Part shown: positions 35,947 to 38,849 of the stretch, one piece after another | How the letters are laid out: the number at the start of each line of letters is the position of its first letter | Position numbering within the stretch: position 1 is the first letter of the stretch | Assembly: GCA_947311105.1 (NCBI GenBank) | Contig: CAMZKG010000113.1 | Span: forward strand, 1-43,575 | Length of the DNA stretch: 43,575 bases | Direction of reading: 5' to 3' | DNA from: an uncultured Saprospiraceae bacterium | GTDB lineage: Bacteria > Bacteroidota > Bacteroidia > Chitinophagales > Saprospiraceae | Notes under the pieces: generated by a model | What the model was told of the DNA's origin: nothing | The model's input: the letters and a program-made list of their open reading frames with translations, nothing else | Databases searched by the model: none | Program-made: the position numbers and the translations under genes

Positions 35947-36205
35947 TTTTTAGAAAATAAAGCAGCGCTTTCGCAAAAAAACGCCTAACTCTTTCGCAAA
36001 TATAGAACTAAACATGGTAATAATCTACAAAGTTGCGAAAAATCTGATTTTTTAATGTTTTCCTTGCTTGCCATTGACAACTCTCCTGCCAATAATCAAC
36101 TCCTGCAACACCGCAAAGGCACAAAGCATTGCTCCCTTTACTCCGCCAATGCTGCCACACACGACATTTTTTTTAAACACATAGAAGCATAGGAGCATGA
36201 TGCTA

Positions 36206-36470
36206 CCTTACCCCGTTATACCGTCATACCGCTACATCCGTCACACCCGCTACACCGCTACACCGCTACACCCGTTACACCCGTTACACCCGTTACACCC
36301 GTCACACCCGTCACACCGCTACACCCGTTACACCCGTCACACCGTTACACCCGTTACACCCGTCATACCGTTACACCCGTTACACCCGCTACACCCGCTA
36401 CACCCGCTACACCGCTACACCGTCACACCCGCTACACCGCTACACCCGCTACACCCGCTACCCCGTCACA
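36206..36470. repeat. ~265-bp minisatellite of ACACCCGYT (9 bp) / ACACCGYT (8 bp) units
   Basis: Long run of cacccgttacacccgctacaccgctacac...; 3' end overlaps the tcdA stop. Confidence 0.95.
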
Positions 36471-37207
36471 TCCCGAATCACCCATTCAGCCATATAAAGT
36501 CCAAACAAGGCAGGCATATAAGACACCGTCCCGTAATAGGTCTTTTTGTAATTGGCTCCATCGGTATATTCAAGTGCATCTTCATTGATAGGCTCGGTAC
36601 TACAGACAACTTTAAATTTCCGTAAGGCTTTCTTTTTTTTGAGTAACTTTTTGATTTGGTACGCCAGGCGGTCATTTTCTGTTTTCCAAATACTCATCAC
36701 TTTTACCTTGCTTGCATCCATCTTTCCGCCAGCCCCCATCGAGCTTATAAAAGGCGTATTATGCCTTTTACAGGCCAAGATTAAGCGATATTTGGGCTGA
36801 ACACTATCAATACAATCCAACACATAATCAAACCCTTTCCCCACCAAATCCAACATCATATCGGGCTCCAAAAACTGCTGAATGGCCTCCACTTCCAATT
36901 CAGGGTTAATCGCTTCCAACCTAGATTTGATCAACTGCGCCTTACTTTGCCCTATGGTAGAATCTAACGCAATAATTTGTCGATTTTTGTTGGTAATATC
37001 CACTTCATCCCCATCTACTACAGTCAATTTCCCGATTCCTGCTCTTGCGAGAAATTCCGCTGCAAATCCACCTACTCCACCAAGCCCCACGATAAGTATA
37101 TTGGCTTCTTGCAAACGCCGAGTTTGAGCTTCCCCGACCAACAGGGTCATTCTATCCAACCAATGTTTTTCCACTATGTCTATTTTTGCACTTTCGTAAA
37201 ATGTCAT
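36458..37207 (-). CDS. tcdA: ThiF/MoeB-family, tRNA threonylcarbamoyladenosine dehydratase-like
   Basis: DRMTLLVGEAQTRRLQEANILIVGLGGVGGFAAEFLARAGIGKLTVVDGDEVDITNKNRQ; DYVLDCIDSVQPK; SSMGAGGKMDASKVKV. Confidence 0.93.
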   Translation of the reverse strand: MTFYESAKIDIVEKHWLDRMTLLVGEAQTRRLQEANILIVGLGGVGGFAAEFLARAGIGKLTVVDGDEVDITNKNRQIIALDSTIGQSKAQLIKSRLEAINPELEVEAIQQFLEPDMMLDLVGKGFDYVLDCIDSVQPKYRLILACKRHNTPFISSMGAGGKMDASKVKVMSIWKTENDRLAYQIKKLLKKKKALRKFKVVCSTEPINEDALEYTDGANYKKTYYGTVSYMPALFGLYMAEWVIRDVTG

Positions 37208-37349: not shown

Positions 37350-37415
37350 TTGAGTCCACTCCGAAAAGTCAATGTCCTTTTTTGTTTGGAGATTTCGCAA
37401 AATTTTATTCTGTGA
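37350..37415 (-). repeat. Diverged inverted copy (R3) of the dispersed repeat
   Basis: TTGAGTCCACTCCGAAAAGTC-N26-GCAAAATTTTATTCTGT vs reverse complement of R2 TTGAGCTTACTCTGAAAAGTC-N26-GCAAAAATTTATTTTGT. Confidence 0.5.
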
Positions 37416-37541
37416 GACCCAATTTCCAGACTGGTTTCAGTTGAACCTTTAGTTTTGCAATAAAGAATTTATTAATGATTTATCATTACCATCACTTTTC
37501 TTTTTTTGCTTCTTTTTTTCTTTGTTAATAACTTTGCAAAA

Positions 37542-37685
37542 TGTGGAAAAGGATGGGGTGAACTAGCAGTTGAACTAGATTTTTGATCCAACAATTGTAT
37601 TAGTCCCCATCCTTCCACACAAACGGTTACAAGGACCAAATAGAATTTTAGGTAATTACCTAGTAAAGGTTTTAGTCAAGTAACC
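37542..37685 (+). ncRNA. Candidate IS110 bridge-RNA region
   Basis: Stem-loop 1: TGTGGAAAAGGATGGGG (37542-37558)/CCCCATCCTTCCACA (37605-37619). Stem-loop 2: GGTTAC (37625-37630)/GTAACC (37680-37685) enclosing TAGGTAATTACCTA. Confidence 0.55.
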
Positions 37686-37709
37686 ATTTTTTAATTAAAA
37701 TCAAAGATA

Positions 37710-38705
37710 ATGAAAATTAAGGAAATCGTTGGAATAGACATCAGCAAAAATGAATTTGATGTTCGAATTCACACATCCAAAGAGTATGAAGTTTTTGCCA
37801 ATCAAAGCAAAGGTTTTAAGCGCCTTATAAAGTGGGTTTTCAAGGTCTCATCATTTGCGAAGGACGAGATATTTTTTGTTTTCGAGCACACTGGCATATA
37901 TTCATATCAGTTAGCCGCTTTTTTAACCGAACAGGAAATTCCTTTTGCGATCATTCCAGGTTTAGAGATAAAAAGGACTCTTGGCTTAGCTCGTGGAAAA
38001 AGCGACAAAGTAGATGCCACACGGATTGCTCGTTATGCTTATCTAAGACGTGATGAAATAACACCTTATAAGCTAGCTAGCAAGGAGTTACAAGAGCTTA
38101 ATGGCTTGTTTACTCTCCGCAAACGATTAGTGCGCCAGAAGGCAGGATATGTCGCTAGTTTGGGAGAAAATAAGAGCGTAAAACGACGAAAAGATAATTT
38201 GACAGAATTCGCTGTTATGGAATCAATAATAAGAACAATGACCAAAAAAATTGAGAAAATTGACCAGGCGATGAAGGCTATTATTGATAACGCATCCAGT
38301 CTAAAACATCTTTATACCCTAATCACTAGTGTCAAAGGAATAGGACCACAAACTGCATATATTTTGCTAATTACCACACAAGGTTTTACTAAATTTAAAA
38401 CTAGCAGGCAATATGCTTCTTACGCTGGCGTGGCTCCATTTCCGCACCAATCAGGAAGTAGTATAAGAGGAAAAACCAAGGTAAGCCACTTAGCTAATAA
38501 AACTGTAAAGGCTATATTATCCAGCGCCGCCCAAGCCGCCATAAAATGGGATCCTGAGCTCAAAATATATTACCAAAGAAAAGTAGCTGAAGGCAAGCAT
38601 CCAGCTCTAGTTATCAACATTGTTAGAAATAAACTGTTGGCCAGAGTGTGGGCTGTTGTTAATAGGGGGACTCCCTTCCTAGATTTATGCAAATATGCCT
38701 CGTAA
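37710..38705 (+). CDS. IS110 family transposase (DEDD)
   Basis: IVGIDISKNEFDV; FVFEHTGIYSYQLAAFL; LARGKSDKVDATRIARYAYL; Tnp20 region VKGIGPQTAYILL...QYASYAGVAPFPHQSGSSIRGKTKVSHLANKTVK. Confidence 0.96.
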   Translation: MKIKEIVGIDISKNEFDVRIHTSKEYEVFANQSKGFKRLIKWVFKVSSFAKDEIFFVFEHTGIYSYQLAAFLTEQEIPFAIIPGLEIKRTLGLARGKSDKVDATRIARYAYLRRDEITPYKLASKELQELNGLFTLRKRLVRQKAGYVASLGENKSVKRRKDNLTEFAVMESIIRTMTKKIEKIDQAMKAIIDNASSLKHLYTLITSVKGIGPQTAYILLITTQGFTKFKTSRQYASYAGVAPFPHQSGSSIRGKTKVSHLANKTVKAILSSAAQAAIKWDPELKIYYQRKVAEGKHPALVINIVRNKLLARVWAVVNRGTPFLDLCKYAS

Positions 38706-38753
38706 AATAAGGGAAAAAAAGAGCTAGGGAGCACTTGCTTTTAACATAGAATA

Positions 38754-38849
38754 CAATTGCACGATTGCACGATTGAACAAAATAAATTTTTGCTTCACTC
38801 TTTAGCTAAAGTTTACAACGACTTTTCAGAGTAAGCTCAACTATTGACC
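38754..38849 (+). repeat. Dispersed ~95-bp repeat, copy R2
   Basis: CAATTGCACGATTGCACGATTGAACAAAATAAATTTTTGCTTCA...GTAAGCTCAACTATTGACC; matches R1. Confidence 0.75.

What the first reader, a model, noticed from the sequence alone, without database searches (positions are those of the whole stretch)
37542..37685. Candidate bridge RNA of a previously uncharacterised IS110 element
Seen directly: the 170 bp between the left flank and the transposase ATG folds on paper into two adjacent stem-loops. The first has arms TGTGGAA(AA)GGATGGGG / CCCCATCCTTCCACA around a 46-nt loop. The second is closed by GGTTAC/GTAACC, has an internal GAC/GTC stem and an apical perfect palindrome TAGGTAATTACCTA. Established: IS110-family elements express a bridge RNA from the non-coding end, with separate target- and donor-binding loops. 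Inference: this is that RNA, giving a candidate programmable recombinase from a Bacteroidota host.
Basis: partly seen in the sequence, partly recalled or inferred. Interest (0 to 1): 0.78.

Follow-up and report, generated by a model that had tools for sequence, protein, structure and literature searches.

The report
IS110 bridge RNA in a Bacteroidota element
This is the guide ("bridge") RNA of a jumping gene in a Bacteroidota bacterium: its two loops match the DNA site it jumped into and its own ends, so it is a new, well-supported member of a known class of RNA-guided recombinases.

Summary
An empty site (19 aligned uninterrupted copies of a host-specific dispersed repeat) fixes the element at 37447-38754: 1308 bp, core AC, left end 263 nt, right end 49 nt. 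That is IS110-group anatomy. The structure at 37542-37685 lies inside the left end. A covariance model finds the same two-loop RNA upstream of most related transposases: 18 of 25 pairs have compensatory changes, covariation 0.67 versus 0.23 shuffled.

The loops also read as guides. The first holds CAGTTGAAC (left target plus core) and CAATTGT (pairs with core plus right target). The second holds ATAGAAT (right-end terminus) and TAAAGGT (pairs with core plus left-end start). Across relatives, target guides match their own flanks far better than other elements' flanks (0 of 20,000 permutations, both sides).

Two details were not in the finding. The circle junction would rebuild a Bacteroidota-type promoter (TTG-N20-TAnnTTTG). 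A diverged second copy has the target repeat inserted inside its own target-binding loop.

Verdict: new member of a known kind and a candidate programmable recombinase. Expression, binding and recombination are untested.

The parts
37447..38754 (+). Complete IS110-group element, 1308 bp counting one copy of the core
   Evidence: Junctions set against 19 uninterrupted copies of the host repeat
37445..37446 (.). Core dinucleotide AC, left junction
   Evidence: Empty-site comparison
38753..38754 (.). Core dinucleotide AC, right junction
   Evidence: Empty-site comparison
37350..37446 (+). Left part of the dispersed host repeat that holds the target (left target CAGTTGA next to the core)
   Evidence: Repeat family, about 40 copies in this genome
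38753..38840 (+). Right part of the same host repeat (right target AATTG next to the core)
   Evidence: Repeat family
37450..37457 (+). Candidate -7 box TAGTTTTG at the left-end start; complete as a promoter only with the right end (circle)
   Evidence: Junction promoter scan; consensus from PMC7366714
38735..38737 (+). Candidate -33 box TTG in the right end, 20 nt from the -7 box once the ends are joined
37473..37488 (+). AT hairpin TAATGA-TTTA-TCATTA near the left-end start; possible 5' stem-loop of the RNA
   Evidence: Fold; similar hairpins in close relatives; covariation not formally tested
37543..37693 (+). Bridge RNA structured part (target-binding and donor-binding stem-loops)
   Evidence: Covariance model R1, 111 bits, but the window is one of its seeds; covariation
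37542..37558 (+). Target-binding stem, 5' arm
37605..37619 (+). Target-binding stem, 3' arm
37567..37575 (+). Left target guide CAGTTGAAC
   Evidence: Identical to left target plus core, 9 nt
37592..37598 (+). Right target guide CAATTGT, pairs with ACAATTG (core plus right target)
   Evidence: 7-nt match
37625..37630 (+). Donor-binding stem, 5' arm GGTTAC
37680..37685 (+). Donor-binding stem, 3' arm GTAACC
37640..37646 (+). Left donor guide ATAGAAT, identical to the right-end terminus 38746-38752
   Evidence: Sequence; conserved in relatives
37664..37670 (+). Right donor guide TAAAGGT, pairs with ACCTTTA (core plus left-end start)
   Evidence: Sequence; RDG and left-end start covary in relatives
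37710..38705 (+). IS110 recombinase, 331 aa; D10, E59, D99, D102 and S248 conserved
   Evidence: Pfam and NCBIfam, alignment
38706..38754 (+). Right non-coding end, 49 nt

Best explanation
The structure is the bridge RNA of a complete IS110-group insertion sequence at 37447-38754. Inferred cycle: the recombinase excises the element as a circle; joining the right end to the left end builds a Bacteroidota-type promoter (TTG in the right end, TAGTTTTG at the left-end start) that transcribes the left end. The RNA binds the recombinase. Its first loop pairs with the target CAGTTGA-AC-AATTG in a dispersed host repeat, its second with the element's own joined ends ATAGAAT-AC-CTTTA, and strands are exchanged at the AC core. 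Shown here: element ends, conserved RNA fold, guide matches, conserved catalytic residues. Inferred: transcription, RNA-protein binding, catalysis and programmability.
For: Empty site in host repeat copies. Covariation 0.666 against 0.230 +/- 0.022 shuffled. RNA model matches upstream of most related transposases, including many not used to build it. All four guides match. LTG to own left flank 6.9 nt against 3.3 for other elements, RTG 6.0 against 3.1, 0 of 20,000 permutations each. Three identical copies in another genome share just the flank their loop predicts. Left-end start and RDG covary, p = 2.8e-6 by Fisher test. NCBIfam 'IS110 family RNA-guided transposase' above its cut-off. Split promoter in 23 of 42 junctions against 0.56% background.
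Against: No transcript, binding or recombination data. The left donor guide matches 7 nt but not the core (TT where AC would be expected). In the window's minimum-energy fold LTG and RTG partly pair with each other. Relatives are not independent, so permutation numbers are not exact probabilities. The three-helix layout with a 5' stem-loop of IS621 is only partly evident.
Confidence: 0.94

Rival explanations
1. The hairpins are a cis-acting leader (attenuator or translation control) of the transposase mRNA and do not guide recombination.
For: The structure ends about 20 nt before the ATG, and a covarying leader would also give the result.
Against: A leader gives no reason for loop sequences to track the insertion flank from element to element or for RDG to track the left-end start. 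A secondary regulatory role is not excluded.
Confidence: 0.03
2. The inverted repeats act as DNA, as recombinase binding sites at the element end, not as RNA.
For: Transposon ends often carry inverted repeats, and the left end has further palindromes.
Against: The stems lie about 100-240 nt from the left end, their sequences change freely while pairing is kept, and one guide in each loop is complementary to the DNA, as expected of RNA-DNA pairing.
Confidence: 0.02
3. The structure is a chance fold of AT-rich intergenic DNA.
For: The region is AT-rich and such regions form hairpins easily.
Against: Fold z = -5.3, covariation and target matching.
Confidence: 0.003

Closest known systems
IS621 (IS110 group) and its 177-nt bridge RNA (PMC11208160, PMC11208158)
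   Same: RNA in a long left end; target loop before donor loop; left guide read as the top strand, right guide complementary to it; core dinucleotide in LTG, RTG and RDG; promoter formed at the circle junction; insertion into a repeated host sequence (REP elements for IS621); DEDD plus Ser recombinase.
   Different: Core is AC (NC in relatives) instead of CT. RTG pairs over 7 nt where IS621 uses 4. Here LDG does not cover the core. The junction promoter has the Bacteroidota TTG/TAnnTTTG form instead of sigma-70. Left end is 263 nt with about 95 nt before stem 1 (191 bp in IS621).
ISEc21 seekRNA (IS110 type, PMC11187229)
   Same: Upstream non-coding RNA needed for circle formation and transposition; promoter formed by abutted ends.
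   Different: Not shown experimentally here; sequence relationship of the RNAs was not tested.
IS1111 group (for example ISEc11)
   Same: Same DEDD recombinase superfamily and RNA-guided logic.
   Different: IS1111 carries the RNA in the right end and has longer subterminal inverted repeats; here the right end is only 49 nt and the RNA is in the left end.

Membership tests
[quoted passage not shown]
   E = 5.1e-22 and 2.5e-21, both above curated cut-offs; NF033542 180 bits, cut-off 140
IS110 family recombinase | Catalytic DEDD and serine residues | tested here: met
   D10, E59, D99, D102, S248 invariant in 12 relatives; equivalence to IS621 D11/E60/D102/D105/S241 is by spacing and motif, not by structure
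IS110 group (against IS1111) | Left end longer than right end, RNA in the left end | tested here: met
   263 nt against 49 nt; RNA at 37543-37693
Bridge RNA | Conserved structure with two loops upstream of related recombinases | tested here: met
Bridge RNA | First loop complementary to both halves of the genomic target | tested here: met
   LTG 9 nt, RTG 7 nt in the window; concordance across relatives
Bridge RNA | Second loop complementary to both element ends (donor) | tested here: met
   LDG 7 nt without the core, RDG 7 nt with the core; RDG/left-end covariation
Bridge RNA | 5' stem-loop before the target-binding loop | tested here: inconclusive
   AT hairpin at 37473-37488 in the window and similar ones in close relatives, absent or different in others
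Bridge RNA | Promoter formed at the right end-left end junction | tested here: met
   TTG-N20-TAGTTTTG across the joined ends; 23 of 42 relatives; sequence evidence only
Bridge RNA | RNA expressed, bound by the recombinase and required for recombination | not testable with these tools
   Needs bench work

The most novel reading that the evidence does not exclude
Bacteroidota IS110 elements form a distinct bridge-RNA subfamily: an NC core whose first base may differ between donor and target, a promoter split across the circle junction in the TTG / TAnnTTTG form so that the RNA is made mainly by the excised circle, and, in some Flavobacteriaceae relatives, two tandem bridge RNAs in one element.
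Probability: 0.35. Interest if true: 0.55.

Novelty: new member of a known kind. Interest (0 to 1): 0.4.

Why it matters
It adds a fully delimited IS110 system from Bacteroidota with all four guides assigned, dozens of naturally reprogrammed relatives, and an RNA that no Rfam 15 family matches at gathering threshold. Natural variation in cores and guides across these relatives is a ready data set on what a bridge recombinase tolerates, and the promoter type suggests candidates for use in Bacteroidota hosts. The mechanism itself is already established for IS621.

Tried and rejected
Rfam gathering-threshold search: no match. First genome-contig scan with the single protein: no relative confirmed; a profile scan then gave 80 loci. 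Orthologous empty site in same-genus genomes: the neighbouring gene is present, but similarity stops before the repeat and element, so the ends could not be fixed there; paralogous repeat copies were used instead. Testing whether the first core base at the left junction pairs with RTG gave little excess (17 against 14.5 expected), whereas it does pair with RDG (31 against 16.9); this hints that donor and target cores may differ by one base, and was not pursued. A second TAnnTTTG at 37529-37536 with a TTTG upstream could be an internal promoter; its conservation in relatives was not tested.

Full report
Observation. Both stem-loops exist at the stated coordinates. The region 37535-37692 folds at -48 kcal/mol against -29.1 +/- 3.6 for shuffles, z = -5.3. 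The downstream ORF 37710-38705 is an IS110 recombinase. D10, E59, D99, D102 and S248 are invariant among 12 relatives and correspond in spacing and motif to the IS621 set D11/E60/D102/D105/S241.

Element ends. The two flanks belong to one dispersed repeat of about 190 bp, found about 40 times in this genome and nearly absent from 20 relatives. Nineteen uninterrupted copies aligned with the window flanks mostly read TCAGTTGAAC-AATTGCACGATTGCAC across the junction. The element is therefore 37447-38754, with AC at both junctions, a 263-nt left end and a 49-nt right end. The genome still holds 23 perfect copies of the 14-bp target CAGTTGAACAATTG, against none for the reversed control pattern.

Guides. 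In stem-loop 1, CAGTTGAAC (37567-37575) equals left target plus core, and CAATTGT (37592-37598) pairs with ACAATTG, core plus right target. In stem-loop 2, ATAGAAT (37640-37646) equals the right-end terminus, and TAAAGGT (37664-37670) pairs with ACCTTTA, core plus left-end start. Order and sense are those published for IS621. A scan of window positions 40-37000 on the + strand found none that matched both target guides this well. The left donor guide does not extend into the core, unlike IS621.

Relatives. The protein was found in 84 of 298 genomes drawn from the family, and a profile scan gave 80 further loci, nearly all labelled Bacteroidota. Contigs of some of these family genomes have the same lengths and positions as records labelled uncultured Saprospiraceae, so the host is probably Saprospiraceae (inference). 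Fourteen left ends were aligned. They give 25 pairs, 18 with compensatory changes; 96.3% of cells pair against 75.5% shuffled; the covariation score is 0.666 against 0.230 +/- 0.022, and at most 0.17 when partners are slid. A covariance model built from them finds the RNA upstream of most transposases not used to build it.

Target concordance across elements. Guide positions were taken from the model alignment. Left ends were located by the donor motif CCTTTA/CCCTTA and right ends by their match to LDG, so target matching played no part in placing them. The longest LTG match to the element's own left flank averages 6.9 nt against 3.3 for other elements' flanks (n = 46); for RTG it is 6.0 against 3.1 (n = 42). 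No permutation of 20,000 reached either value. Related elements are included, so this is not an exact probability, but the effect is large. Independently, three identical copies in one nearly complete genome share the flank their loop predicts: TACTAGC on the left and, after the GC core, AA on the right in all three. Five copies in Bacteroidetes bacterium UKL13-3 have left flanks of the form AACG(G/T)TT(T/G)G, matching their LTG AACGTTTTG with at most one mismatch.

Promoter. Joining the right end to the left end gives TTG and TAGTTTTG with 20 nt between. TTG-N19..22-TAnn[TAC]TTG spans the junction in 23 of 42 relatives, against 0.56% of random segments and 0.48% of shuffled junctions. The Bacteroides fragilis consensus is TTTG near -33 and TAnnTTTG at -7 (PMC7366714). 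By inference the RNA is made mainly from the excised circle, as reported for IS621.

Second copy. Contigs C37 and C105 overlap by 75 identical bases at their ends. Joined in this way (an inference from the assembly), they show a diverged relative (61% aa over its first 148 residues). Its target-binding loop is interrupted by a whole copy of the same dispersed repeat, and its ORF is cut short. It is probably inactive.

Limits. No experiment was run. The literature search found no paper in the open library describing Bacteroidota bridge RNAs specifically, but most subscription papers are not held, and Durrant et al. already predict a bridge RNA in 85.7% of the IS110-group elements catalogued in ISfinder. 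This is therefore a new member of a known kind.

Noticed in passing
L117:2010-2437, L120:686-1110, L129:1995-2429: Three Flavobacteriaceae loci carry two tandem bridge-RNA-like structures about 275 nt apart in the left end, with the same stem 1 but different target loops. In L120 and L117 the second RNA's LTG matches the left flank (TTGCTATTC); no target was found for the first. Possibly a dual-bridge-RNA IS110 element.
   Followed up: partly
37350-37446 and 38753-38840; about 40 copies elsewhere in G000: Host-specific dispersed repeat with inverted ends (TTGAGTCCACTCCGAAAAGTC / GACTTTTCAGAGTAAGCTCAA) and a short direct repeat TCAACTATTGA at its outer edges in the window; looks like a small non-autonomous mobile element.
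   Followed up: partly
G000:C37 end joined to G000:C105 end (L055, L002): A diverged second IS110 copy has a full copy of that repeat inserted in its target-binding loop, and its ORF is truncated: a natural disruption of a bridge RNA.
   Followed up: partly
37489-37528 and left ends of about 20 relatives: A strongly conserved pyrimidine tract (TTTTCTTTTTTGCTTCTTTTTTCTTTTG) lies between the left-end start and stem 1 in a subset of relatives; function unknown.
   Followed up: no
Left junctions of relatives: The first core base at the left junction pairs with RDG more often than expected (31 of 46 against 16.9) and not with RTG, suggesting donor and target cores can differ by one base.
   Followed up: partly
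36197-36625: ORF with a low-complexity translation rich in HPLHPLHP, overlapping the end of a ThiF/TcdA-like gene on the other strand; probably a simple repeat, not a gene.
   Followed up: no
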